Below are positions 26,778 to 58,954 of a stretch of DNA of 64,000 bases, piece after piece. The notes under the pieces are model-generated. The model was not told the origin of the DNA. It did no database searches and worked only from the letters and a program-made list of their open reading frames with translations. The DNA is from Veillonella infantium. Lineage in GTDB: Bacteria > Bacillota > Negativicutes > Veillonellales > Veillonellaceae. Position 1 is the first letter of the stretch, and every line of letters begins with the position of its first letter. The position numbers were made by a program, and so were the translations under genes. Location of the stretch: positions 1 to 64,000 of the forward strand of contig NZ_PPDD01000006.1 in assembly GCF_002959895.1 (NCBI RefSeq), read 5' to 3'.

Positions 26778-29024
26778 TTAAAAGTTATGTCTAACGCCAG
26801 CATCGATACGCCATGTATTATCTATAGTAGCACCAAAGTTTTTAGTGAGTGTGCCATATAGATATGTGCTAGGACGAACACTCCAAGAACCGCCGATTTC
26901 CGCATCAAGCCAAGTATCCTTCAAGTCAACTGTGGTTTGAACTGTTGGGTTACCTGGTGCAGAATATGTAGTATTTACCTTACCAGAGAATTCATGAGCT
27001 AGTGCTAATTTAGCAAAGATATTGGATTTTTCTGTTTCTTTACCAATACCAATGCCGATTCTACCTACAGCAGAGTTCACAGCATCAGATTTAACATGCA
27101 TAGATCCGCCGCCTGCAATAGTTGCATCATAGGATACACCATTTAAACGACCTAGAATAAATTCTACACTAGGGTCGATATAGAAACCATTTTGTTTTTT
27201 AATGCGTTTGCCATATTCAGCACTCAAAGATGTACCAAATGTATGGTAGTTACCATTCAAACGTTGGCCACTAATTGAGTTAAGGCTATAGTCGTTGGAT
27301 AATCTATTACCACGAGCGATGATATCAATATACCGACCATCGTCATGTTGTTTTGTACCATATAAGGCTATACCGCCAAGCTTACCGTCGCCACTGCCGT
27401 TGGCATAAGAGTTACTAGATGTACTGTAATCTAGGGCACCGCCGAAAATCCAGCCATTGGAGGCTTTATGATCATATCCGATTTGTACGCCATTGTACGT
27501 CATATGTGCATCAGCACCATCTGTAATCTTAGATTTACCGCCTATATATTTAGCCCATATTCCTTTATCTGTATTAGCTAGACGAAGATCACCTAAACGA
27601 CGTTGTAAATCATTCGTATTATTTTTCCAGGCCATAACTGTTGAAGTAAGGGCAGATTTTGTGCCACTTACGAGTGATGATTCGCTAGCACGAATAACTT
27701 TTGTTGTATCATCTACAATGAGATGGCCTTGAGAATCAAAATGATCTGCCCCTAGATCTGCAACAGCACCAGGTGTAGTAACGCCTTCATTGATTTGAAC
27801 TCTTGTGCTAAGCTTCTTATCATTGCCTGTGTATTGTAATTTCTCAGCTAATGCTTGAATATCCTTTTTGTAGCTTGCATCGTCGATGGTATTACCGGAA
27901 TGGTCGCCTTGCATTGTAATATGGCTATTATCCGCCGCATGTTCAACGATGATTTGCCCTTTTCCTGTATCACTAGCCGGCACACCAGATTTATAAATAG
28001 CATTCACATAACCGCTATAGTTCTGAATTGTTATAGGCCGCGCATCGATAGGATGAATGTTACCTGCTGCAGTTGGGTTAACACCACCTACAAGATTGCG
28101 AATCTTACTGCCCTTGTATAGGTACGCTGCATTATCCCCTGATGGACGTTCTTTTTTAGGTGTAGGGCGCTCCATACCAATCCACTCATTATTCCAAGTA
28201 GCACCATTTTGTAGATAAATATCTGCACCAGAATTATGAGGGTTTTTATTGCTTTCAGCATATTCATTCAAAACAGCACCGGTAAGGCTAGAGTTAGGTG
28301 TTGTGAAAGCTAGTGCTATATTAGTTGGTTCTACATTGTGATTTGGATCTCGGCCATAATCCTTGTTGATAAGGCCCACATTACCAACAGCAACTAAGTC
28401 ATGAGTGCCTGGATGTTTGCCATCAGCGCCTGCATTAACATATACATCCCCTTCTTCTGCTACTACAGAATAGGTATCAGATGTTTCTACAGGATGAGTG
28501 ATAATCTTACCGCCTCCATCAACAAGGATATGACCTCGTTGATTGACTTGTAAACCAGAGCCGATAGCATCGATATCCACATTACCTTTTACATGAATAT
28601 TAGTATCACCATAGTCTCGATCAGGGTTATCTTTACTTAGACGTGGCACCTTCCCACCGTAACCAGCATAAACAGCACTCATATAATAATGACCTAATTC
28701 TCGCTTCGATGCTGGTGCATCATTCTTTAATCGTACAATAAGGTCTTTATCTACCGTTAGTTGTGAACCAAATCCATTATAAATACCTGTAACATTCTTA
28801 CTTTTACCAGCCTCTGTTAAACTTTTACCATGTACATTAACTGTTAATGTATCCTCTATGTGTTTAACCTCAGGTTGCGTTTGTACTGGTGAGCCCATTG
28901 TTAAACCCAGTAACTCCTCTGCTTTATCGCTAGAAACATTAATTTCTGTAGCCATTGCAGAATAAGATATACCTGTTAATACTAGTGCAGTCATCACGGC
29001 TGATACATGACGTCTAATCTTCAT
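26778..29024 (-). CDS. Autotransporter (type Va secretion) outer-membrane protein
   Basis: A 748-residue exported protein. The signal peptide is MKIRRHVSAVMTALVLTGIS followed by a likely cut after AMA. Residues up to about 470 form a passenger rich in Gly, Asn and Asp with beta-helix-like repeats (NVDIDAIGSGLQVNQRG and similar). The rest is an autotransporter beta-barrel: GIWAKYIGGKSKITDG, VQIGYDHKASNGWIFGGA, ending in WRIDAGVRHNF with the terminal Phe used by the BAM complex. Function is probably adhesion, which is inferred. AAGGAGAG precedes the ATG. Confidence 0.9.
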   Translation of the reverse strand: MKIRRHVSAVMTALVLTGISYSAMATEINVSSDKAEELLGLTMGSPVQTQPEVKHIEDTLTVNVHGKSLTEAGKSKNVTGIYNGFGSQLTVDKDLIVRLKNDAPASKRELGHYYMSAVYAGYGGKVPRLSKDNPDRDYGDTNIHVKGNVDIDAIGSGLQVNQRGHILVDGGGKIITHPVETSDTYSVVAEEGDVYVNAGADGKHPGTHDLVAVGNVGLINKDYGRDPNHNVEPTNIALAFTTPNSSLTGAVLNEYAESNKNPHNSGADIYLQNGATWNNEWIGMERPTPKKERPSGDNAAYLYKGSKIRNLVGGVNPTAAGNIHPIDARPITIQNYSGYVNAIYKSGVPASDTGKGQIIVEHAADNSHITMQGDHSGNTIDDASYKKDIQALAEKLQYTGNDKKLSTRVQINEGVTTPGAVADLGADHFDSQGHLIVDDTTKVIRASESSLVSGTKSALTSTVMAWKNNTNDLQRRLGDLRLANTDKGIWAKYIGGKSKITDGADAHMTYNGVQIGYDHKASNGWIFGGALDYSTSSNSYANGSGDGKLGGIALYGTKQHDDGRYIDIIARGNRLSNDYSLNSISGQRLNGNYHTFGTSLSAEYGKRIKKQNGFYIDPSVEFILGRLNGVSYDATIAGGGSMHVKSDAVNSAVGRIGIGIGKETEKSNIFAKLALAHEFSGKVNTTYSAPGNPTVQTTVDLKDTWLDAEIGGSWSVRPSTYLYGTLTKNFGATIDNTWRIDAGVRHNF

Positions 29025-42685: not shown

Positions 42686-44326
42686 TTAAGACATCATACG
42701 TTCCATCATATATTCAATTTCATCAGCACTCAAATTGTACATAGCCTGTACCATTCGCTCTGCTGACTCACCAGATGCACCACTTTTCGCAATTTCTGCT
42801 TTTGCCTTAGCTATAAGGGCTTCCTTGCGTTGTGCTTCGGAATCTTCATCTGTTGGTACGGAAATATTAGCTTTACCTTGACCAATACCACGTACCTCTT
42901 GGTTAGGATTATCTTTAGACGTTGTTTTCGTATCTTGGGCGGCCACCGCTTCCATAGCGAAGGAGTTTTTACCAGTCATGATATACTCCACAGCCTCCAA
43001 GGTACTTTGTGTAAGATTTACAGTCCAGAATTCACCAGCTGCAGTCAATTTATAAAGTAACCCATTGTAAGCTACAAGACCACGTTCTTCCCATAATTTA
43101 TAGAGCCAGTTTAATTCTTCTAGTCTTGGATCTAGTGTTACTAAACTCATAATATTGAGGAACCCTTGTTCAAGTTGGCTTACCACTTGATTTACGACGG
43201 GTTGTAACTCACTTTGTTTCATAAGAGCCATGAATGGTTTTTCACCGCGACTAACCATATCTTCGTATGGCTTTAATGCACGATGTAACATCATGCCGTA
43301 CCCATCAACGTTACCACCGGCACCGCTACCAAATGGGAACATAGGCACGCCCGCTTTAGCCAAGATATTATAAAGGCTACGTTCACGGTTGTTAGCACTC
43401 CAGTGGGCTGCACTCAATCGACGATAGGAACGCTCATCAAGGTACTTACGACCGAGTTCGAACATATCCCCTTGCATAGAAGTTGTCGCTGCCGCTGGCA
43501 CTTTGCCCTTTGCAATGTCTTTATTAAGATCACTGCCATCAAATACGTTCAATTGATAAAGGTCAGCACCATCTACGCCAGAACTTACTAAATCGGCTAA
43601 GTCTTGTTCCCAAATTTCCATAGTTTGACCAGGTAAGCCATAGATTAAGTCGATAACCACAGAACATTGTCCATACGCTTTCAGCGCAGCTAAACGTTCT
43701 AACACGGTTTCTTTCGTATCTAAACGACCTACCATTTGACGTACTTCTGTATTGAAAGATTGTACGCCGATAGACATGCGGTTAACACCATTTGCCATCC
43801 ACACATCGAGATTTTCAGGAATCAAATCGTGAATACGGCCTTCTAATGTAAGCTCGTAATCGTTAGCTAGTGGCAAATATTCTTTAATTGCTTTTAACAA
43901 TCGTTCAGAGTTTGTTGGAGACAACGATGTTGGCGTACCTCCGCCGATAAATACGGCGTGGATTAATCCATTTTTCAATCTTGGACGTTCACTAGCCATC
44001 TTTAATTCACTAATGAGTCCATCAATATATTGGTCCTCTACGCTTTGACTCGTACCATTTTGGAAGAAGCCACAATATGTGCATTTTGTCTTACAAAACG
44101 GAATGTGAATATAGACGCATTGCATTTCACCCTTTTTAGGTGTGCCATTCATTACAGTATCCCAAACGGCTTGTGTTTCCTTTGGAGAAACTAAGATACC
44201 ATTTAGCCCTGCATGAACAACCCGTTTATGAGGGAATGCATCACTCATCGGATTATCGCATTCTAAACCTAGTTGTAGATTGCGTTGTTTCTCCGGAATG
44301 GATTCAAAGAAACTTGCTAAACTCAT
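42686..44326 (-). CDS. hutW: Anaerobic haem-degrading radical SAM enzyme, ChuW/HutW/HmuW type
   Basis: Opens the haem ring without oxygen, using SAM and electrons from a flavodoxin, and frees iron. The 546-residue protein has the radical SAM cluster motif YIHIPFCKTKCTYCGFFQN. This CGFFQN form, together with SAAHWSANNRERSLYN and PFGSGAGGNVDGYGMM, separates ChuW/HutW from coproporphyrinogen enzymes. An in-frame extension to 44443 is discarded because AAAGGGG precedes the ATG at 44326. The last 90 residues are an Ala/Lys/Glu-rich tail beyond the usual family end. It follows a flavodoxin gene by 20 bases. Confidence 0.9.
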   Translation of the reverse strand: MSLASFFESIPEKQRNLQLGLECDNPMSDAFPHKRVVHAGLNGILVSPKETQAVWDTVMNGTPKKGEMQCVYIHIPFCKTKCTYCGFFQNGTSQSVEDQYIDGLISELKMASERPRLKNGLIHAVFIGGGTPTSLSPTNSERLLKAIKEYLPLANDYELTLEGRIHDLIPENLDVWMANGVNRMSIGVQSFNTEVRQMVGRLDTKETVLERLAALKAYGQCSVVIDLIYGLPGQTMEIWEQDLADLVSSGVDGADLYQLNVFDGSDLNKDIAKGKVPAAATTSMQGDMFELGRKYLDERSYRRLSAAHWSANNRERSLYNILAKAGVPMFPFGSGAGGNVDGYGMMLHRALKPYEDMVSRGEKPFMALMKQSELQPVVNQVVSQLEQGFLNIMSLVTLDPRLEELNWLYKLWEERGLVAYNGLLYKLTAAGEFWTVNLTQSTLEAVEYIMTGKNSFAMEAVAAQDTKTTSKDNPNQEVRGIGQGKANISVPTDEDSEAQRKEALIAKAKAEIAKSGASGESAERMVQAMYNLSADEIEYMMERMMS

Positions 44327-44345
44327 ACTCCAATCCCCTTTCAGT

Positions 44346-44864
44346 TTAGGCTTGCAACTTTGCAAGTACAGATTTAGTGAATTCTTTTGCATTTGCAAAG
44401 TCTTGTTCATCTGGATGCGTTTCAGCCGCCTTATGTAACGCATCCCGTTCAGGGCTTTGTCCGTGGGCAGATCCAGGTGGGAACATTTTATACATCATTT
44501 CGATTACTTTAGGGTCGATTTTGCCTTGGCATACAAAACCATCTACAAGAGACTCTTTATTATGTAGTAATTCAGATGCTTTTTCAATACTTTCACGAGC
44601 ATGATCAGAATCTGCATACATACCTAATGTCCCAAAGAATACGATGTTAGGATTTGTTAAGGTTTCAATCAATTTTGCAGCCTCTTTATTTGCTGTACCA
44701 CGGTCTACCCAGAAACCTACGAATACTGTGTCATAATCAGCTAAATTTTCAGGCGCTTCTTTTACAGGAACGCAAGGTGTACCTTCAGGCATTACAGAAG
44801 CCATTGCTTCCGCTACGCTTTTTGTATTTCCCGTGAGGGAAGAATATAAAATAATGGATTTCAT
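44346..44864 (-). CDS. Flavodoxin, probable electron donor to the haem-degrading enzyme
   Basis: A 172-residue flavodoxin. The FMN phosphate loop YSSLTGNTKSVAEAM is followed by VFVGFWVDRGTANKEA, which binds the flavin ring, and GTLGMYADSDHA. In Fusobacterium a flavodoxin gene (hmuF) pairs with the radical SAM haem enzyme HmuW, and this arrangement is the same. It is most likely the electron donor. AAGGAG precedes the ATG. The tonB gene lies 62 bases upstream. Confidence 0.88.
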   Translation of the reverse strand: MKSIILYSSLTGNTKSVAEAMASVMPEGTPCVPVKEAPENLADYDTVFVGFWVDRGTANKEAAKLIETLTNPNIVFFGTLGMYADSDHARESIEKASELLHNKESLVDGFVCQGKIDPKVIEMMYKMFPPGSAHGQSPERDALHKAAETHPDEQDFANAKEFTKSVLAKLQA

Positions 44865-46133: not shown

Positions 46134-46751
46134 TTATTTCCACCCTTCTCGTTTAGCAGTCACAAGGCTTACACACATATTTTCAATTTGGTTAATAATA
46201 GAATCTAAACGATGACTAAAGATTGTATACACAATAAATGCCATGATAGCTACGCACAAACCAGATGCTGTGGCGATGAGGGCTTCACCGACACCACCAG
46301 TAATGGCAGATGCACCAGCACCAGAGTCGAGGATGCTGAAAGAACCAATCATACCTGTTACAGTACCAAGCAACCCTAACAATGGAGAGATTGTTACTGT
46401 TGCACTGAGGTAGTCCATATATTTACGGAAACCTACTACATCTACCCCCATTTGGTCCGTAAAGGCTGTTTTCATCGCTTCTTCGCTAGAAGCATTATGT
46501 AAACCTGCTTCTGCAATGCGGCTAGCAATAGATGGGTTTTCTTTGATTACTTTATCAATTTCTGCCCAATTTTGTAACTTTGCTAGTTCATTGACTGCAT
46601 GAGTAACAACGAATGTTTTACCAGCATATTTGCGATAGTAGAAAGCTCGTTCTACAGCGATAGCGATAATCATAAGAGACAAAAACAATAATGGATACAT
46701 TACATACCCACCACTATGAAACAAGTGAATGACATAATTTAAGTTTTCCAT
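46134..46751 (-). CDS. exbB: ExbB, MotA/TolQ/ExbB proton-channel subunit
   Basis: A 205-residue inner-membrane protein with three helices: the first at residues 15-37 (MYPLLFLSLMIIAIAVERAFYY), and the second and third around TVTISPLLGLLGTVTGMIGSF and GVGEALIATASGLCVAIMAFIVY, which hold the channel Thr and Glu. It forms the proton channel with ExbD that powers TonB. It follows the receptor gene by 35 bases. Confidence 0.94.
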   Translation of the reverse strand: MENLNYVIHLFHSGGYVMYPLLFLSLMIIAIAVERAFYYRKYAGKTFVVTHAVNELAKLQNWAEIDKVIKENPSIASRIAEAGLHNASSEEAMKTAFTDQMGVDVVGFRKYMDYLSATVTISPLLGLLGTVTGMIGSFSILDSGAGASAITGGVGEALIATASGLCVAIMAFIVYTIFSHRLDSIINQIENMCVSLVTAKREGWK

Positions 46752-46786: not shown

Positions 46787-49700
46787 TTAGAACCTGTAAG
46801 TCCCTTGAATTCTTGTATAATCGCCTAACTTAAAGCTTTCACTACCATACAAAGTATCTCGTTTATTAGTACCCTTCGCATCGAATGTATAGAATGCCTC
46901 AAGGAGCAAGTCCTTGCGAGGTACATAGCCGGCACCAAATGTAAAGCTGCGAATACCATCGAGATAACGATCCGGCACTGCGCCAGTACCATTGCCACCA
47001 AAGAAGGAGCCATGTTCGAAATGTTTGTAATCGATGAAGGCATTCCAAGATTTTGGAATATCTAGGTCAGCACGGCCAATATCTAGACGAGCCATCCAGA
47101 AGTGTGGTGTACCACCCATTTGATGACCTTTAAGGGCAAAGTCTGCTGTACCTCGTTCATGTTCATAAACAGTATTACCATTTAAGTAACGGCCAAGGTT
47201 AGAACGGTTTTGTCCGTAGTCAACAGTAACAGATGCATTAGCACCCAGTTGATATTTAGCGCCGATACCGAATACATGAGCTACATTGGAGAAACTGTAT
47301 TCATCATTACCGTTGCCATTTGCATTGAGGTATGTATGCGTTTTACCACCAAAGGAGCGTAAATACCAGGCTTGTAAACCAAGACGAGAGCCAATTTGTT
47401 TCTTATATTGAACAAAGGCGGCTTTATCGATAGCTGGCACAGTATCTTTTTCAAGAACTACCCCTTCTGTGCGAATCAAGTTGCCAATGATCTTACCAAT
47501 CGCTTCACGAGGCAATTTGTTTTCAGACTCTGCATCATGTACAACTTTTTCAAGATTATACATATAGTTAAACATTGCATTTGGCATGCCCCAACCATAA
47601 TAAGAGCTACCTTCACCCCAATCATTGGAGGACATGGTAAAGTTCTTTTTATAAATGGCATCTTTAGCATCAAAATCGCTAAATACATAACTACCACTAT
47701 CGTATTTATACGTTTTAGCACCTACATAACCAGTGAACTCATAATCACTAGATGGTTGTCCATAGTAATCATAAGATTGTTTGAACGTCCCATCTGGCTG
47801 TTTAACCCAAACTACATCAAGCTCACTATTGTTATAGTTACTCCAGTTATCTGTAGCATTATAGTTAGCAATTTCTGCTACCGATTGATTGATGTCGTCA
47901 CCATGTTTTTCAACATAGGCTTTAGGATTTACTAAAGCATCTTTATTATCAGTAGATACGATAAGACCTTTAGCTTTTTCTTTTAAGTATTCAGGGTATA
48001 AAGAAGAGTTCACATTATACATAATGTCACTAGTCTTATATAGTTTTTCCCCTGTATTCTTATTAGTGATTTCGTACATTGCATAACCACCAGATGGAAT
48101 ATCGAGGGAGAATTTTTTCTCCGCCATATCTGTAGGATATGCCTTTGTAAGAATATCTTGTAAGCGGCTCATAATTTGAGCTTGTTTTTGTTGTGTTTCT
48201 GCAAGCTTAGCATTAGCCTTTTCAATTTCTTGATCTCGATTTGGATTACTCCAACTTAGATTCAATGTAGCTTTATACGCATCATATTCATCTTGTAATC
48301 CTTTTAGCTGTTGATAGAAGTAAAGACTATCGGTCTTACCTTTGTAAGTAGAATCATAAATACCATTAGGGCTATCTGGTGCAGCTGCATCTTCATCAGA
48401 TTTTTTCTCACCATCAGAACCTGTTTTTGTAGCACTACTTATATCGTATGGGAACTCATCTCGGTTAATACCAATCAATTCAGCCGCTGTTGGTGGTCTG
48501 TAGATAACTTCATGTACTGCATGAGTGTAGGCAGAATCAGTGATACCTGTACTATGTTTGAAAGTACCAACACCGATACGAACTTGAGAGTCATGACCGT
48601 TCCAAACGGCACGAACACCATCATAGGATTGACCAAACCAGTAACCACTAGCCCCCATTGGCTCTGTTAAGCGGCCCACTGATACATCCCATTTTTTAAC
48701 CCGTCTTGTGAGATCCACCGTATCGAGTCGTTGATGGTTAAAGCCTTTAGAATCAGATTGAGTCCAGCTTGTATCGACACCACTCATGCCAGTCGCACTG
48801 CCGATAACCTTAAGATTTGTAAACTCATTAAGGCGTGCATCAAAGCCAAGACGCAATCGTTGTTCAAAGCTATGACGATTAGCATCGTACATATTCGCTT
48901 TTGCAGAACCGATAGCGGAGTTAGCTCTAAATGGAGATTGAGGTCTATTAGATCCATCATGTGCCATCCAGCGTGCTCTATAATCGCCGACTAATGTAAC
49001 ACCACGCTCTTTAGTGGTATCAAAATCAGAATGAATAAAGTCAGTTAAGCGAACTACATCAGCTACATTTTGTACGCCAGATTCAGCACTACCAACATCA
49101 CCATTTGCATTTGCATTTGCATTTGCACCTGCTACGCCAGCCTTTCCACCATCTTTGGTCTTACCGATAGCCGTAGTTTTTGTACCATCGCCACCACCGA
49201 ATTTAAGGTTAACACCCACGCGGTATACCCGTTCTTGTGTAGCACGGTCATCATCGCGATGGTTAAAGATATTGTTAATACCAAAGTACATCATGGCATT
49301 TTTATTGAATCGTTTTTGAACCATTACGTTCCAAATGCCAAATGTTTTCTTTTCATAAGTTTGCTTATTATAAACGCCTGCATCACCGGACAAGATATCT
49401 GGCCAGTAGTTACCGCCATTGTTAAGGGTATTACTATCAAGCATGTTGATATAGTAATCACCCCAAATAGAACCATTCCAACCGGATTTAGGATTATCAT
49501 AAGTAATGCCGATGTCAATCTTGTGCATTGGTTTATCAAGCAATTGACGAGGCATTGAAGGATCGCTCTTATTGATGGCATGTAAGTATGTATAACCTAA
49601 CTTACCAGACCAATATTTGCCGAACTTTTGCTGTACTTCCGCTTGAACACCGGTAATCTCTGCTTTACCAATATTTTTAAAGCTGTAAATCATGTCTGGT

Positions 49701-51874
49701 GCCCGTTGGTACTTCGCATCGCCTTTGAGGTATGGCGCAAAGTCCATGAAGTCCCCTGTGAAGTACACGGACATATAGTTCTTGATGCGGTTGTGGAATA
49801 CACCTACGCGGGCATAGGTATTTTTATTTTCCCCTTCTAAACTCATATCAAAGTTGACAGATTTTTCTGGTTTTAAATTAGGATTACCAGCCCAGTACCA
49901 ACCGAGTTTTGCCACCCCAATCCCTACAGGATTGGAAGCGTACATTTCCCAGTTGTACCATAATTCGCCCATGCCAGGTTCAGTATAACCCGTGCCTACA
50001 TTGGCTTTAAACCTACGATGTGTATTGCCCTTTACGTTATAGGTCATACCTAAGGAAGCAGAGAGATTAGAACCAAACAAGCTACTATTGTCAAAACGTA
50101 AAATTGGAGACAATGTTAAATTCTTATTCACTTGCCAAGTATCAGAAATATACGCGTTTAACTTGCGGATTGTACCGCTACCAGTGGTCAATCGTTGATC
50201 CCGATTACGGTACTCTTCCAAGAAGGCTTTGCCATTTAATTTAGGCGCCTTTTTACGCATTTCTGGGTCATTGGACTCGCCATATTTAAAATAGTCACCT
50301 ACGATATTGGCACGTGTGGCAGATAATACGGGATTTTCTGCTTTTAAACGATCCTCTAAGGCTTTATAGCGAGCTTTAAACTCATCCGTTACAGGTTGAT
50401 TATTTGGGGATGTACTAGACCAATCACTTAATCGGCTTTCAGACAAACCATAGTTTACATAATCATCATATGTAATGCCTGGCTTTTGTGCATCTGTAGC
50501 GGCACCATAGTATTCGTAATCCATATCCCATTGGGGCATACCACCACCGGAATTGATGAATTTGTAGTCGTGGATATGAGAGTAAACTTTAATACTATTA
50601 TCACCTTTACGTCTTACAAGACGATCGAGTTTATCCACTAGCAAGCTTTTATCGTAATCCCATGGATCGATGTACATTGTGCTTGTATTAGGAGAGCTCT
50701 TCAATCGGCTACCAGAACCTTCTTCACGAGCATAGCTGACGCCGTAGCTAAGCAAGTGATTTTTATTGAGTTGTGTATTCGCATTAGCTCGAATGTCTAA
50801 TTGACGATGATCGATATTATCGATATAGCGCAACTCATTGGAGCCTTCATAAGCAGAACGACCAGTATAACTAATGAGGGCTACGTCATTTTCTTTGATG
50901 CGGGAGTAGTTAGTTTCAACCGTCCAGTCGCTTTTACCAGCTCGAGAGGACCATTGTAAGTTTGCTGTATTACGGTCCGCAGTACGTTTGAAATGTTGTT
51001 GTGGCTCTAAGTCGGAGTCAGAGTGTTTAACATCGCGTACAAGATCTTCTGTATAGCGGTTGAGACGCATTTCAAATTTATTTTTATCATTTGCCTCGTA
51101 AGTTGCTACAAGACCGATATCGGCCGCATCACCGTAGTAACGAAGTACATTGGGCTTAAAATTATGTTTTGCATAGTCATAAGCCATACCGGATGCACGG
51201 CGGCTAACGGATGCTAAGACAGGCATGAGATCACGTTTACTACCAGATAAACCGACCTTCAATTTCCCCATTTGACCGGAGTCGGCACGAATGAAGAAGT
51301 TCTGGAATGGGAACGTATCGCCATCGCTCTTACGGCGCATACCTTCTGTATTTAATTGCAAGGTTGGTTTCTTTTGTGCCTTTTTAGTGATGATATTAAC
51401 TACACCACCTATAGCATCAGAGCCGTATTTAGCACTGGCCGCACCTTGAATAACCTCTATACGTTCAACGTTTTCTGTACCTAGCCGTTGTACTTCGTCT
51501 GCTGCACCAGAGTACTTATCAAAATCGCCGAGAACGGGTTGACCATCTACGAGAATCAGTGTGTGACGCACTTCGGCACCGCGGATAGATACACCAACAC
51601 GGCCCATAGCATCAACGGTTCTAGATACACCTGTTTGAGTAAATATAATATCTTCGACGGACTTCGCCTGTTTCTTTTCAATCTCTTTCTTGGTAATGAT
51701 TTGCACTTGCTGTGAGTTCAATTTTGCTTCTTCTTCAGCCCATGTTCCTTTAACATGAACTACATCTGTCGTAACAGTCGCATTCTCCGCCCATACTACA
51801 AGCGGTGCACTAAGCCACAAGGCAACTGCACTGGACAGAATAATACTGCGTTTTGCATGTCCCCACCGGTTCAT
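46787..51874 (-). CDS. TonB-dependent receptor fused to a second, porin-like beta-barrel
   Basis: A 1695-residue outer-membrane protein. A signal peptide (about 1-29) is followed by a plug domain with QVQIITKKEIEKKQAKSVED, VSIRGAEVRHTLILVDGQPV and ASAKYGSDAIGGVVNIITKK. A 22-stranded-type barrel includes GNPNLKPEKSVNFDMSLEG, the NPNL motif seen in haem receptors, and ends in RVYRVGVNLKF (Phe 892). A Gly/Ala/Asn linker spans about 893-936. Residues 937-1695 form a second barrel that begins TLVGDYRARWMAHDG, has RLRLGFDARLNEFTNLKVIG strands as in Negativicutes porins, carries a coiled-coil insertion near 1180-1240, and ends YTRIQGTYRF. GAGGAGG precedes the ATG. The frame is unbroken. Confidence 0.9.
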   Translation of the reverse strand: MNRWGHAKRSIILSSAVALWLSAPLVVWAENATVTTDVVHVKGTWAEEEAKLNSQQVQIITKKEIEKKQAKSVEDIIFTQTGVSRTVDAMGRVGVSIRGAEVRHTLILVDGQPVLGDFDKYSGAADEVQRLGTENVERIEVIQGAASAKYGSDAIGGVVNIITKKAQKKPTLQLNTEGMRRKSDGDTFPFQNFFIRADSGQMGKLKVGLSGSKRDLMPVLASVSRRASGMAYDYAKHNFKPNVLRYYGDAADIGLVATYEANDKNKFEMRLNRYTEDLVRDVKHSDSDLEPQQHFKRTADRNTANLQWSSRAGKSDWTVETNYSRIKENDVALISYTGRSAYEGSNELRYIDNIDHRQLDIRANANTQLNKNHLLSYGVSYAREEGSGSRLKSSPNTSTMYIDPWDYDKSLLVDKLDRLVRRKGDNSIKVYSHIHDYKFINSGGGMPQWDMDYEYYGAATDAQKPGITYDDYVNYGLSESRLSDWSSTSPNNQPVTDEFKARYKALEDRLKAENPVLSATRANIVGDYFKYGESNDPEMRKKAPKLNGKAFLEEYRNRDQRLTTGSGTIRKLNAYISDTWQVNKNLTLSPILRFDNSSLFGSNLSASLGMTYNVKGNTHRRFKANVGTGYTEPGMGELWYNWEMYASNPVGIGVAKLGWYWAGNPNLKPEKSVNFDMSLEGENKNTYARVGVFHNRIKNYMSVYFTGDFMDFAPYLKGDAKYQRAPDMIYSFKNIGKAEITGVQAEVQQKFGKYWSGKLGYTYLHAINKSDPSMPRQLLDKPMHKIDIGITYDNPKSGWNGSIWGDYYINMLDSNTLNNGGNYWPDILSGDAGVYNKQTYEKKTFGIWNVMVQKRFNKNAMMYFGINNIFNHRDDDRATQERVYRVGVNLKFGGGDGTKTTAIGKTKDGGKAGVAGANANANANGDVGSAESGVQNVADVVRLTDFIHSDFDTTKERGVTLVGDYRARWMAHDGSNRPQSPFRANSAIGSAKANMYDANRHSFEQRLRLGFDARLNEFTNLKVIGSATGMSGVDTSWTQSDSKGFNHQRLDTVDLTRRVKKWDVSVGRLTEPMGASGYWFGQSYDGVRAVWNGHDSQVRIGVGTFKHSTGITDSAYTHAVHEVIYRPPTAAELIGINRDEFPYDISSATKTGSDGEKKSDEDAAAPDSPNGIYDSTYKGKTDSLYFYQQLKGLQDEYDAYKATLNLSWSNPNRDQEIEKANAKLAETQQKQAQIMSRLQDILTKAYPTDMAEKKFSLDIPSGGYAMYEITNKNTGEKLYKTSDIMYNVNSSLYPEYLKEKAKGLIVSTDNKDALVNPKAYVEKHGDDINQSVAEIANYNATDNWSNYNNSELDVVWVKQPDGTFKQSYDYYGQPSSDYEFTGYVGAKTYKYDSGSYVFSDFDAKDAIYKKNFTMSSNDWGEGSSYYGWGMPNAMFNYMYNLEKVVHDAESENKLPREAIGKIIGNLIRTEGVVLEKDTVPAIDKAAFVQYKKQIGSRLGLQAWYLRSFGGKTHTYLNANGNGNDEYSFSNVAHVFGIGAKYQLGANASVTVDYGQNRSNLGRYLNGNTVYEHERGTADFALKGHQMGGTPHFWMARLDIGRADLDIPKSWNAFIDYKHFEHGSFFGGNGTGAVPDRYLDGIRSFTFGAGYVPRKDLLLEAFYTFDAKGTNKRDTLYGSESFKLGDYTRIQGTYRF
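49103..49126. repeat. (ATTTGC)4 repeat in the linker of the double-barrel protein
   Basis: Four exact hexamers code for alternating Asn and Ala. Gain or loss of units keeps the reading frame and changes linker length. Confidence 0.8.
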
Positions 51875-51924: not shown

Positions 51925-52001
51925 AAATAAAAAGATACACTTTACCAACATATAATGACATTGAAAATCATTTACATTTTAATGTTAGCAAAGTGTATCT
52001 T
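51925..52001 (-). terminator. Long-loop terminator-like hairpin behind the AraC gene
   Basis: A perfect 12-bp stem (AAGATACACTTT, 51932-51943, with 51990-52001) encloses 46 bases, and TTTTTATTTTG follows on the minus strand. It lies in the leader of the receptor gene, with a Fur-like site in the loop. Confidence 0.6.
51957..51975. promoter_or_regulatory. Fur-box-like site upstream of the haem receptor
   Basis: GACATTGAAAATCATTTAC agrees at 14 of 19 positions with the E. coli Fur consensus by my own alignment. It lies 83 bases before the receptor start, which suits iron control of the operon. Binding is inferred. Confidence 0.45.
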
Positions 52002-52142: not shown

Positions 52143-53033
52143 TTATACTTTACGATAAGCACTAGGCGTTACACCTGTGGCCTCTTTGAATGCACTAGTA
52201 AATTTACTACCATTCTCGTAGCCTACGGCATTAGCAATTTCTAAAATAGATTGATCTGACTCTTGAAGCAAGTGCTTAGCTGCATTAATACGACATTCCT
52301 TTAAATATTGATGGATTGTCGTACCATATACCCCTTTAAAACAACGCTTTAATGTTGATGTAGGAATATCAAATTGCTCAGATAAAGAGTCTATAGTAAT
52401 CCGTTTCATAAACTGTGTAGATATATATTTATTAACAGCTTTTACAATATCTACTTGTTGTTTACGATAAGAGCTTCTCTTTTCATGATTAGCTGTCGAA
52501 ATAACAGATAACAGTAAGAAGATTTCAATGACTTTTAATTTAAAATAGTGCCCCTTAATTTGATTAGGCACTTTATATAAACTAGAAAAAATCTGACGAA
52601 CAGATTCCGTTTCTTCCATCATCATACCAAAGTCAGAATGCTCACAAAATCGATTTGCTAATTGAGTCAAATCGATGCGCGCTTCAGTAACAAGTCCATC
52701 TAATACGGGTTGAGCCTTTTCAACATCTACAAGTAATACAATCCCCTTAAAGAGTTTTGTAGGGAAGTAGTTCTCATGTTGATAATCAGCATGAGTATGC
52801 CATCCTAAGGACATATCCCCTGGCCCCATATATAAATATTCACCAGATGTAAACTTGCACTCTATGCGCCCCTCTTCACAATGATTTATGGCAAACGTCT
52901 TTGTATGTGATTTAGCATAAAATTGAATCGTTTCTTGCTTCACATCAAGGAACATCAAATCAATACCGTCAAACACTGTATGTCTCGACATAGAAGTTCC
53001 TGCATATGAAACTGCATGATTATGTGAATTCAT
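52143..53033 (-). CDS. AraC-family regulator, PchR-like
   Basis: A 296-residue transcription factor. The N-terminal part has YFPTKLFKGIVLLVDVEKAQ, the pattern seen in PchR/YbtA-type regulators that sense iron chelates. The C-terminal AraC DNA-binding region has two helix-turn-helix units (IDSLSEQFDIPTSTLKRCFK and ILEIANAVGYENGSKFTSAFKEATG). It lies directly upstream of the receptor operon on the same strand, so that operon is the probable target. The ribosome binding site is weak (GGTGAT). Confidence 0.88.
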   Translation of the reverse strand: MNSHNHAVSYAGTSMSRHTVFDGIDLMFLDVKQETIQFYAKSHTKTFAINHCEEGRIECKFTSGEYLYMGPGDMSLGWHTHADYQHENYFPTKLFKGIVLLVDVEKAQPVLDGLVTEARIDLTQLANRFCEHSDFGMMMEETESVRQIFSSLYKVPNQIKGHYFKLKVIEIFLLLSVISTANHEKRSSYRKQQVDIVKAVNKYISTQFMKRITIDSLSEQFDIPTSTLKRCFKGVYGTTIHQYLKECRINAAKHLLQESDQSILEIANAVGYENGSKFTSAFKEATGVTPSAYRKV

Positions 53034-56149: not shown

Positions 56150-57157
56150 ATGCAAACTTCTATAAAAGCATTAATACTATGTGTAATATTATGTATTTCA
56201 TTGGTAACAGCCTTGCAATTTGGGGCCAATTTTATCCCTTTAGATCAAATTATTTCAGCTCTTATGTCGATGATTGATCCCAACGCCAAAGCCTCTATGA
56301 CAGATACAATCATTACAGATATACGCTTACCACGACTTATTTACTCGGTACTGACAGGCATTGGCCTGTCGCTTGTGGGTTTGTTAATGCAAACGGTAAC
56401 TAGAAATGCTCTAGCAGATCCCTATGTATTAGGTGTTTCATCGGGCGCTAGTACAGGTGCCGTCTTTGCTATTATCATGGGCGGTATTCCACTACTAGGG
56501 GCCTATAATACACCTGTTTTTGCAGCCCTAGGTGCAACGCTCTCTATTATCTTGGTATTGCTCTGTGTTGGTAAAAGCAACAGCCCGGTAAAGCTCATCC
56601 TAATCGGTATGGGCATGACGGGGATATTCTCGGCTTTAACTATGATGATCATCTACGGAGCCAAGCATGAGGCACAAGTTCGAAGTGCTATGTTCTGGCT
56701 CCTAGGTAGCTTCGCAGGCATTCAATGGGGTGATTTACCATTAACGGCTATCATTGTAACCTTGTTTATGCTATACATCTATATGTTTAATCAAGATCTT
56801 GATGTGCTACTACTGGGTAATCATGAAGCAGCACAAATGGGCTTATCAGTTAAACAGTTACAGCTAAGCATCGTTATTATATCCTCTATTGTCATTGCCA
56901 CATTAGTATCAAAAGTGGGTGTAGTTGGTTTTATAGGACTCATAATTCCACACCTAGCTAGAATTGTAGGTGGCCCTAAGCATAGAAACACATTACTTTT
57001 TAGTGCTCTAATCGGTAGTATCGTCATGATATGGTCAGATGTATTATCAAGAGCCCTATATAGTCCGGAAGAAATCCCAATCGGTGTTCTTACATCCTTA
57101 CTAGGGGCGCCACTCTTCATTTGGATTATTATGAATCGTTACAAACACAATGGTTAG
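56150..57157 (+). CDS. FecCD/BtuC-family ABC permease (iron, haem or B12)
   Basis: A 335-residue inner-membrane permease with about ten helices. The motifs DIRLPRLIYSVLTGIGLSLVGLLMQ, NALADPYVLGVSSGASTGAV and VGFIGLIIPHLARI are standard for the family. It is first in an operon followed by its ATPase and binding lipoprotein. The ligand could be haem, siderophore-iron or cobalamin; the haem locus next door makes haem or iron plausible. AAGGAG lies five bases before the ATG. Confidence 0.9.
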   Translation: MQTSIKALILCVILCISLVTALQFGANFIPLDQIISALMSMIDPNAKASMTDTIITDIRLPRLIYSVLTGIGLSLVGLLMQTVTRNALADPYVLGVSSGASTGAVFAIIMGGIPLLGAYNTPVFAALGATLSIILVLLCVGKSNSPVKLILIGMGMTGIFSALTMMIIYGAKHEAQVRSAMFWLLGSFAGIQWGDLPLTAIIVTLFMLYIYMFNQDLDVLLLGNHEAAQMGLSVKQLQLSIVIISSIVIATLVSKVGVVGFIGLIIPHLARIVGGPKHRNTLLFSALIGSIVMIWSDVLSRALYSPEEIPIGVLTSLLGAPLFIWIIMNRYKHNG

Positions 57158-57183
57158 TGTATATCATATCTATAGGAGATACT

Positions 57184-57930
57184 ATGTATCAAATTAATCA
57201 GCTGTCCTTCTCCTACGAGAAGAAAGAAGTGTTAAAGAATATTTCTGTAACATTTCCTAATAATAAAATTACAGCCATCATTGGGCCAAATGGATGTGGT
57301 AAGTCTACATTACTGAGCCATCTTTATCGACTACTACCATCAAAAGATAAAATCACATTAAATCAAAAGCCATTAGAGTCTTATAAAGGTCGTGAGTTTG
57401 CTCAATTAGTAGCAGTTTTAACACAGTCTAGGGACTCTATGATTGATGATTTTCTCGTAAAAGACATCGTCCTCATGGGACGTTATCCATATAAGCAACA
57501 CTTTGGCACCTATAGCGCAGAAGATGTAAAAATTGCAGAGCACTATATGAACGAAGTAGGCATTACACATTTAGCTGACGAAGAAATTCATCACCTCTCA
57601 GGTGGCGAGAAGCAACGCGTTTTTATTGCGAAAGCGTTAACGCAAAAACCTCAAATACTGCTTTTAGATGAACCTACTAACCATCTAGATATGAAGTATA
57701 AGGTAGCACTTATGAAACAATTGCGAGCTTTCAAAGGTACAACCATCGTAGTTCTACACGATTTAAATCTAGCTGCTCAATATTGTGATCATATCGTGAT
57801 TATGAATAAAGGAACAATCCTCAAGGAAGGTTCCCCAACTGAGGTACTAACACCCGAAATTCTTGAACCCATATTTGAAGTTCCGTTCAAAACCTCTTGG
57901 GATGAAAGGCGCTATCACTTATATTATTAA
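57184..57930 (+). CDS. ABC ATPase of the FecE/BtuD type
   Basis: A 248-residue ATPase. Walker A is IGPNGCGKSTLLSHL, the Q-loop follows at VLTQSRDSM, the signature is LSGGEKQRVFIAKAL, and Walker B LLLDEPTNHLD and the switch His in VVLHDLNLAAQYCDHI are intact. The ATG at 57184 has AGGAGA upstream, which is better than the longer frame from 57121 that overlaps the permease gene. Confidence 0.93.
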   Translation: MYQINQLSFSYEKKEVLKNISVTFPNNKITAIIGPNGCGKSTLLSHLYRLLPSKDKITLNQKPLESYKGREFAQLVAVLTQSRDSMIDDFLVKDIVLMGRYPYKQHFGTYSAEDVKIAEHYMNEVGITHLADEEIHHLSGGEKQRVFIAKALTQKPQILLLDEPTNHLDMKYKVALMKQLRAFKGTTIVVLHDLNLAAQYCDHIVIMNKGTILKEGSPTEVLTPEILEPIFEVPFKTSWDERRYHLYY

Positions 57931-57949
57931 TTAAAAGAAAGGACTTACT

Positions 57950-58954
57950 ATGTTTCAAAAATTAAGAAAGTCAAAAAAATTAGTATTAATTGCTATGGCA
58001 TGTGCCACATTTGCTATCGCTGGTTGTGGTTCTGATACAACTAAAAGCACAGCTGACAATGGCAAATCTGTAACGTGGAGTGAAACATTTGACGGTACAA
58101 AAACTGACTTTGCTGTAAAATCTTCCCCTACTCACGCAGTATCCATGTCTCAAGCAACAACAGAAATGATGCTTCAATTAGGTCTTGAAGACAAGATGGC
58201 TGGTACCGCTTTTAAAGAAGAGGAAATCTATCCACCTCTACAAGCCGCTTATGACAAGGTAAAAGTATTATCCGATAAATGGCCGTCCTACGAAGTATTT
58301 ATGTCTGTAAAACCTGACTTTGCAACAGGTTGGCCTGACTCCTTCAGCAAACGCGCCATCCCTGCTGATAAAATGATTGCACAAAAGGTTAACATCTGGC
58401 TTCCTGAATCTATGCTATCTACAAAGGCCGACTTGGAAACTAACTTTAATGACATGATTAAATTAGGTGAAATCTTCGGTGTTAAACCTAAGGCTGAAGA
58501 ATGGGTTGCAGGTCAACGTAAAACATTAGCTGCTATCCAAGATAAGCTAAAAGACTTACCTCGTAAACGGGTCTTCATTTATGACTCCGAAGATGGCCAA
58601 CCATTCACAGCCTTCGAAGGCTACACTACTAACATCTTGAAACTCATCGGTGCTGACAACGTAATGAGCGGCTTAGGTGTTGATAAAACATGGGCCAAAG
58701 GATCTTGGGAAACTGTAATTGCTCAAAATCCTGATTATATCATCATCGCTGACTATGGCAACTCTATCCGTAACGATGACGATTTCCAACAAAAAGTCGA
58801 AAAAATCAAAGCTAATCCTCAACTTCAAGACATTACAGCTGTTAAAGAAGGTCACTTTATCCGTGTAAAACTATCTGAAATCACTCCTGGTGTACGTACA
58901 GTTGATGCTCTAAAACGATTAGCTGAAGAAATTCACGGTGTGAAAATCGACTAA
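57950..58954 (+). CDS. Substrate-binding lipoprotein of the ABC importer
   Basis: A 334-residue lipoprotein. The signal peptide ends in the lipobox AIAGC (Cys near residue 26). The mature part is a TroA/FepB-type binding protein: HAVSMSQATTEMMLQLGLEDKMAGTAF, then VKPDFATGWPDSFSK and a C-terminal VRTVDALKRLAEEI. It is the last gene of the permease-ATPase-binding protein operon and ends in a strong terminator. Confidence 0.9.
   Translation: MFQKLRKSKKLVLIAMACATFAIAGCGSDTTKSTADNGKSVTWSETFDGTKTDFAVKSSPTHAVSMSQATTEMMLQLGLEDKMAGTAFKEEEIYPPLQAAYDKVKVLSDKWPSYEVFMSVKPDFATGWPDSFSKRAIPADKMIAQKVNIWLPESMLSTKADLETNFNDMIKLGEIFGVKPKAEEWVAGQRKTLAAIQDKLKDLPRKRVFIYDSEDGQPFTAFEGYTTNILKLIGADNVMSGLGVDKTWAKGSWETVIAQNPDYIIIADYGNSIRNDDDFQQKVEKIKANPQLQDITAVKEGHFIRVKLSEITPGVRTVDALKRLAEEIHGVKID

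What the first reader, a model, noticed from the sequence alone, without database searches (positions are those of the whole stretch)
46787..51874. A TonB-dependent receptor and a second beta-barrel in one polypeptide
The 1695-residue protein reads as two full outer-membrane barrels. The first has a plug and ends in the usual terminal strand RVYRVGVNLKF (Phe 892). A Gly/Ala/Asn linker follows, then about 760 residues of porin-like strands ending in another C-terminal Phe. Receptors of this class normally end at the first barrel (about 650-900 residues). A fused pair could couple haem capture to a second pore or surface receptor. I am not aware of a described two-barrel TonB receptor, but I could not search.
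Basis: partly seen in the sequence, partly recalled or inferred. Interest (0 to 1): 0.85.

Follow-up and report, generated by a model that had tools for sequence, protein, structure and literature searches.

The report
Haem receptor fused to a porin
One unbroken gene of a Veillonella encodes a TonB-dependent receptor joined end to end to a second complete barrel from the porin family of its outer membrane; the fused form is conserved across many Negativicutes and sits in a haem-use operon, which adds an unusual member to the few known proteins with two barrels in one chain.

Summary
The ORF lies on the minus strand (46787-51874, 1695 aa). Residues 1-892 are a TonB-dependent receptor: plug plus 22 predicted strands, best match Cir, Z 39.9. 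After a ~50-residue disordered linker, residues ~958-1695 form a second complete 16-stranded barrel. Its nearest solved relative is OmpM1, the Veillonella tether porin (Z 28.9; profile match 99.9% once an extracellular insert is removed), but it lacks OmpM's SLH domain. Eleven other Veillonella genomes hold it full length and in frame (86-97% identity). In class-wide scans every strong match to either half sits in a fused ORF or a visibly broken or contig-end copy. Both halves are under purifying selection and their trees largely agree. The operon continues with exbB-exbD-tonB, a flavodoxin and hutW (anaerobic haem degradation), so haem is the likely cargo; that is inference. It is the only plug-domain receptor found in this genome. 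Multi-barrel outer-membrane proteins are already described (Solan 2021; GfcD), so this is a new variant of a known kind. I found no report of this pairing, but the key paper was not readable here. What barrel 2 does is unproven; its pore-lining loops are its most conserved part.

The parts
46787..51874 (-). Two-barrel TonB-dependent receptor gene, 1695 aa
51785..51874 (-). Signal peptide (residues ~1-30)
   Evidence: Sequence inspection; N-terminal hydrophobic stretch
51746..51772 (-). Candidate TonB box TTDVVHVKG (residues 35-43), aligned with TDQVVVTAS of single-barrel relatives
   Evidence: inference
51401..51715 (-). Plug domain (residues 54-158)
   Evidence: PF07715 E 1.6e-21
49199..51364 (-). 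Barrel 1, 22 predicted strands (residues 171-892), ending RVYRVGVNLKF
50195..50710 (-). Extracellular insert of barrel 1 (residues 389-560), absent from the ~694-aa single-barrel relatives
49043..49198 (-). Linker (residues 893-944): low complexity, predicted disordered, fast evolving, no second signal peptide visible
46790..49003 (-). Barrel 2 (residues 958-1695), 16 strands, OmpM-type
47423..48562 (-). Insert in extracellular loop 4 of barrel 2 (residues 1105-1484); conserved edges, variable mostly helical body
48617..48673 (-). Loop 3 of barrel 2 (residues 1068-1086)
46955..47017 (-). Loop 7 of barrel 2 (residues 1620-1640, EHGSFFGGNGTGAVPDRYLDG), most conserved segment of barrel 2
46134..46751 (-). 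exbB
   Evidence: PF01618
45724..46143 (-). exbD
   Evidence: PF02472
44927..45721 (-). tonB
   Evidence: PF03544
44346..44864 (-). Flavodoxin, in the position of hmuF of published haem operons
   Evidence: PF12641; BilS model below cut-off
42686..44443 (-). hutW/chuW anaerobic haem-degrading radical SAM enzyme (true start probably downstream, ORF start overlaps flavodoxin)
   Evidence: TIGR04107 494 bits, cut-off 400
52143..53033 (-). AraC-type regulator upstream
   Evidence: synteny
51928..51999 (-). Conserved leader hairpin followed by T-run, upstream of both receptor paralogues

Best explanation
A two-barrel outer-membrane receptor for haem or a haem-like iron compound. Shown by sequence and model: barrel 1 is a plugged 22-strand TonB-dependent transporter; barrel 2 is a complete 16-strand barrel of the OmpM porin lineage that has no SLH tether and carries a large extracellular loop domain; both are encoded by one in-frame gene that is inherited and selected as a unit, and the gene heads an exbB-exbD-tonB-flavodoxin-hutW operon. 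Inferred: the chain is exported once, through the N-terminal signal; barrel 1 uses its own TonB-ExbBD to import haem, which HutW and the flavodoxin then open in the cytoplasm. Inferred and least certain: barrel 2 is a permanently attached co-receptor placed beside the mouth of barrel 1; its loop-4 domain meets the variable ligand source (host haemoprotein or other carrier), while its conserved loops 3 and 7, which form the eyelet in OmpM1, hold or guide a ligand or seal the pore. It would play the part that separate partners such as HpuA or HmuY play elsewhere (comparison from general knowledge, not tested).
For: Single ORF. Plug and barrel HMMs. Models: 22 strands with Z 39.9 to Cir; 16 strands with Z 28.9, 2.5 A over 284 residues to OmpM1. 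hhalign of barrel 2 without the insert against OmpM barrels: 99.9%, E 4.6e-34; none against SLH. Conservation and in-frame fusion. Ka/Ks 0.01-0.04 for barrel 1 and 0.01-0.08 for barrel 2 core; N- and C-half trees share 15 of 18 splits, Mantel p 0.0005. Operon and synteny to distant Negativicutes; published hmu clusters of Veillonella with HmuW/HmuF/HmuR (PMC10404700). Loop 7 conservation 0.92 against 0.39 in OmpM.
Against: No experiment on this protein. The receptor scores 104 bits against the TonB-hemin model, cut-off 317, and no histidine lies between its FRAP-like and NPNL motifs. The strongest conservation is in the pore, which also fits a selective channel. The insert body is the least conserved part, which can mean relaxed constraint as well as ligand diversity. 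The relative position of the two barrels was not modelled (1200-residue limit). The FecCD/ABC/binding-protein genes in the window (56150-58954) are on the other strand and not in the operon.
Confidence: 0.5

Rival explanations
1. Barrel 2 is a working selective porin: the fusion puts a passive channel beside an active receptor, letting through a small ligand, a chelator freed of its metal, or a product of haem breakdown.
For: 16-strand OmpM fold; OmpM1 is a diffusion porin (PMC10628300); loops 3 and 7, which form the OmpM1 eyelet, are among the most conserved parts.
Against: Intact haem is at or above the usual porin size limit; the invariant Gly-rich loop 7 may close the pore; no pore size could be measured here.
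Confidence: 0.25
2. Barrel 2 is mainly an assembly or clustering module: OmpM barrels form trimers, so barrel 2 would gather receptors into trimers or place them among tethered OmpM porins.
For: OmpM1 is trimeric (PMC10628300) and barrel 2 matches it over the whole barrel.
Against: SLH and stalk, part of the OmpM assembly, are absent; the trimer contact surface was not analysed; conservation peaks at the pore loops.
Confidence: 0.15
3. The fused chain is only a precursor: it is cut in the linker after export into two ordinary barrels.
For: The linker is low-complexity, disordered and fast evolving (Ka/Ks up to 0.57).
Against: No processing site seen; no intact lone copy of either half was found among strong matches; no precedent known to me.
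Confidence: 0.1

Closest known systems
OmpM (SLH-porin, V. parvula OmpM1, PDB 8bys/8bym)
   Same: 16-strand barrel, homologous over the whole barrel; loops 3 and 7 correspond to the inward loops of OmpM1
   Different: No SLH domain or stalk; fused behind a TonB receptor; ~380-residue loop-4 insert; loop 7 nearly invariant
Colicin I receptor Cir / BtuB / FecA class TonB-dependent transporters
   Same: Plug, 22-strand barrel, TonB partners
   Different: Solved members end at strand 22; here 803 residues with a second barrel follow; extra ~170-residue extracellular insert
Multi-barrel outer-membrane proteins (Solan et al. 2021), GfcD/YjbH
   Same: Two complete barrels in one chain, predicted from sequence and models
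   Different: GfcD pairs 12- and 13-strand barrels around a periplasmic domain, proposed for polysaccharide export (PMC11494523); here a plugged 22-strand receptor pairs with a 16-strand porin barrel
hmu haem operons of oral anaerobes (F. nucleatum; Veillonella in Fig. 1 of PMC10404700)
   Same: Receptor with HmuW/HutW, flavodoxin, exbBD, tonB
   Different: The passages I read do not mention the size or second barrel of the Veillonella receptor; the F. nucleatum locus includes hmuTUV

Membership tests
TonB-dependent transporter | Plug domain | tested here: met
   PF07715 E 1.6e-21
TonB-dependent transporter | 22-strand barrel | tested here: met
   AlphaFold2 model, my strand count; Z 39.9 to Cir
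TonB-dependent transporter | TonB box | tested here: inconclusive
   Candidate TTDVVHVKG only
TonB-dependent transporter | Chain ends at the receptor barrel (usual, not strictly defining) | tested here: not met
   803 further residues with a second barrel
Haem receptor subfamily | Curated TonB-hemin model above cut-off | tested here: not met
   104.3 bits, cut-off 316.85; hence not filed as a member by sequence
Haem receptor subfamily | Haem transport or binding | not testable with these tools
   Only operon context: hutW, flavodoxin, tonB system
OmpM | OmpM-type 16-strand barrel | tested here: met
   hhalign 99.9%, E 4.6e-34; Z 28.9
OmpM | N-terminal SLH domain and stalk | tested here: not met
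   No SLH match by Pfam or hhalign
OmpM | Trimer | not testable with these tools
   No multimer prediction available
Multi-barrel outer-membrane proteins | Two or more complete barrels in one chain | tested here: met
   By prediction:
Multi-barrel outer-membrane proteins | Both barrels folded in the membrane as one product | not testable with these tools
   Needs the protein

The most novel reading that the evidence does not exclude
The two barrels work as one machine: TonB-driven movement of plug and barrel 1 is coupled to the conserved lumen of barrel 2, so that an energised receptor gates or feeds a porin-derived channel in the same chain.
Probability: 0.1. Interest if true: 0.9.

Novelty: new variant of a known kind. 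Interest (0 to 1): 0.62.

Why it matters
It joins active and (by descent) passive outer-membrane transport in one chain. It is the only plug-domain receptor found in this Veillonella genome, so all TonB-dependent uptake there may pass through it. The first barrel's terminal strand, normally the C-terminal signal for the BAM machinery, lies 803 residues from the end, which makes it a natural test of whether BAM accepts an internal signal. It also suggests a route by which OmpM barrels gained new roles, in a lineage where OmpM paralogues were called the only general diffusion porins of V. parvula (PMC10628300).

Tried and rejected
Sequence search of the C-terminal half against PDB found no relative (only weak chance hits); profile-profile and fold comparison showed OmpM. 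The two halves are not repeats of each other (hhalign 0.1%). First hhalign of the whole C-half aligned only the last 128 columns; removing the loop-4 insert extended it to 307 columns. A Fur box upstream: 14 matches in the window against 12.6 expected, so not supported. Rfam: nothing for the leader hairpin. The phylum-wide scan with the C-half profile matched 3 of 398 sampled genomes, all of the same class; it scored at most two candidates per listed genome, so absence elsewhere is not shown. Whether the V. parvula proteome of 2017 detected this protein could not be settled: Table 1 lists five TonB family proteins, and I could not firmly map their locus tags to this gene. Solan et al. 2021 is not held, so it may already list this architecture. 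A first selection script failed and was replaced; the SKV38 annotation was not available. Folding the full chain was impossible (1200-residue limit).

Full report
Observation. The ORF at 46787-51874 is on the minus strand, starts with ATG and encodes 1695 residues without interruption. Pfam finds a plug (54-158) and a TonB receptor barrel (467-869), nothing in the C-terminal half. NCBIfam gives only sub-cut-off matches to TonB receptor families.

Barrel 1. AlphaFold2 on an alignment of 20 sequences gives plug plus strands that I count as 22 (pLDDT 76.2). The nearest solved chains are Cir (Z 39.9, 559 residues), BtuB and FecA. Compared with ~694-aa single-barrel relatives it carries an extra extracellular stretch at 389-560.

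Barrel 2. AlphaFold2 on 25 sequences (pLDDT 80.4) shows a low-confidence stretch at 893-940, then a barrel whose strands I count as 16, assigning strands by working back from the C-terminus; a ~380-residue stretch (1105-1484) falls between strands 7 and 8, so on the extracellular side by that count. The best solved match is V. parvula OmpM1 (Z 28.9, 284 residues, 2.5 A), eight units above the next family; Foldseek also ranks OmpM1 first. With the insert removed, hhalign against 13 OmpM barrels gives 99.9%, E 4.6e-34 over 307 columns, and nothing against the SLH domain. Barrel 2 therefore shares ancestry with the OmpM barrel but is not an OmpM.

Conservation. Eleven other Veillonella genomes carry the full-length protein at 86-97% identity. 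In a 300-genome sample of the class, the C-half matches 58 genomes in 14 of 97 genera, the strong matches mostly in ORFs of 1450-1850 aa; the weak matches that I fetched (about 50 bits and below) are ~440-530-aa OmpM proteins. The N-half shows the same gap: matches above 270 bits lie in long fused frames or in copies split over neighbouring frames, and the next matches (152 bits and below, 34-39% identity) are to 669-721-aa single-barrel receptors. Some long copies are broken by frame changes or stops. Ka/Ks is 0.01-0.04 for barrel 1, 0.01-0.08 for the barrel 2 core, 0.07-0.11 for the loop-4 insert and 0.16-0.57 for the linker; several Ks values exceed 1 or are saturated, so these are rough. 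N- and C-half trees of 21 proteins share 15 of 18 splits (Mantel p 0.0005), as expected if the two halves have mostly been inherited together.

Pore loops. Within barrel 2 the most conserved segments are loop 7 (0.92) and strand 13 (0.90), with loop 3 at 0.86; the insert body is at 0.36. In OmpM1 loops 3 and 7 fold inward and form the eyelet (PMC10628300). In the OmpM alignment loop 7 is below the barrel average (0.39 against 0.59). The alignments differ in depth and divergence, so the contrast is indicative. It suggests that the lumen of barrel 2 has acquired a specific role.

Surroundings. Downstream on the same strand lie exbB, exbD, tonB, a flavodoxin and hutW (TIGR04107, 494 bits); upstream an AraC regulator. 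The order is the same in the seven other Veillonella loci examined, and receptor, exbBD, tonB and flavodoxin also cluster in two distant Negativicutes loci (L082, L083), one of which shows hutW. V. parvula SKV38 and V. caviae hold two fused receptors in tandem. McGregor et al. 2023 describe such clusters, Veillonella included, with HmuW and HmuF acting in haem breakdown and trafficking. The window's genome has no other plug-domain protein (completeness 99.95%), while SKV38 has eight.

Mechanism. Shown: architecture, conservation, operon. Inferred from family knowledge: TonB-driven import through barrel 1. Inferred from context: haem as cargo. Open: role of barrel 2. I favour an attached co-receptor, because the fusion would hold a large surface domain next to the receptor mouth; a selective pore and a clustering module remain live.

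Novelty. Two-barrel outer-membrane proteins were described computationally by Solan et al. 2021, and GfcD is a modelled example (PMC11494523, PMC8592465). I did not find the present combination in the papers I could search, but that library lacks the central paper. I therefore call it a new variant of a known kind.

Noticed in passing
window 51928-51999 (-), and upstream of the receptors in L002, L003, L004, L005, L006, L007, L008: A long hairpin followed by T's (z-score -6.2) is conserved upstream of the receptor and of its tandem paralogue, with three main-stem pairs showing changes on both sides; no Rfam match. It may be an attenuator, terminator or operator.
   Followed up: partly
window 56150-58954 (+): FecCD-type permease, ATPase and periplasmic binding protein genes near the haem operon but on the other strand; possible inner-membrane partner.
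   Followed up: partly
L002 2776-7812 and 8001-13070; L008 2762-7813 and 8001-13064: Two fused two-barrel receptors in tandem; the first of each pair is 56% (N half) and 42% (C half) identical to the window's protein, the second is its orthologue.
   Followed up: partly
L078, L079, L080, L081: Fused receptor copies broken by frame changes in other Negativicutes, beside intact copies elsewhere in some of these genomes.
   Followed up: no
L083 9551-9778 and 9914-11641: A remnant matching the end of barrel 2 (85% identity) next to a 576-aa ORF on the other strand that looks like a transposase, between receptor copies.
   Followed up: no
window 26778-29024 (-): Autotransporter with a C-terminal beta-domain (PF03797).
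   Followed up: no
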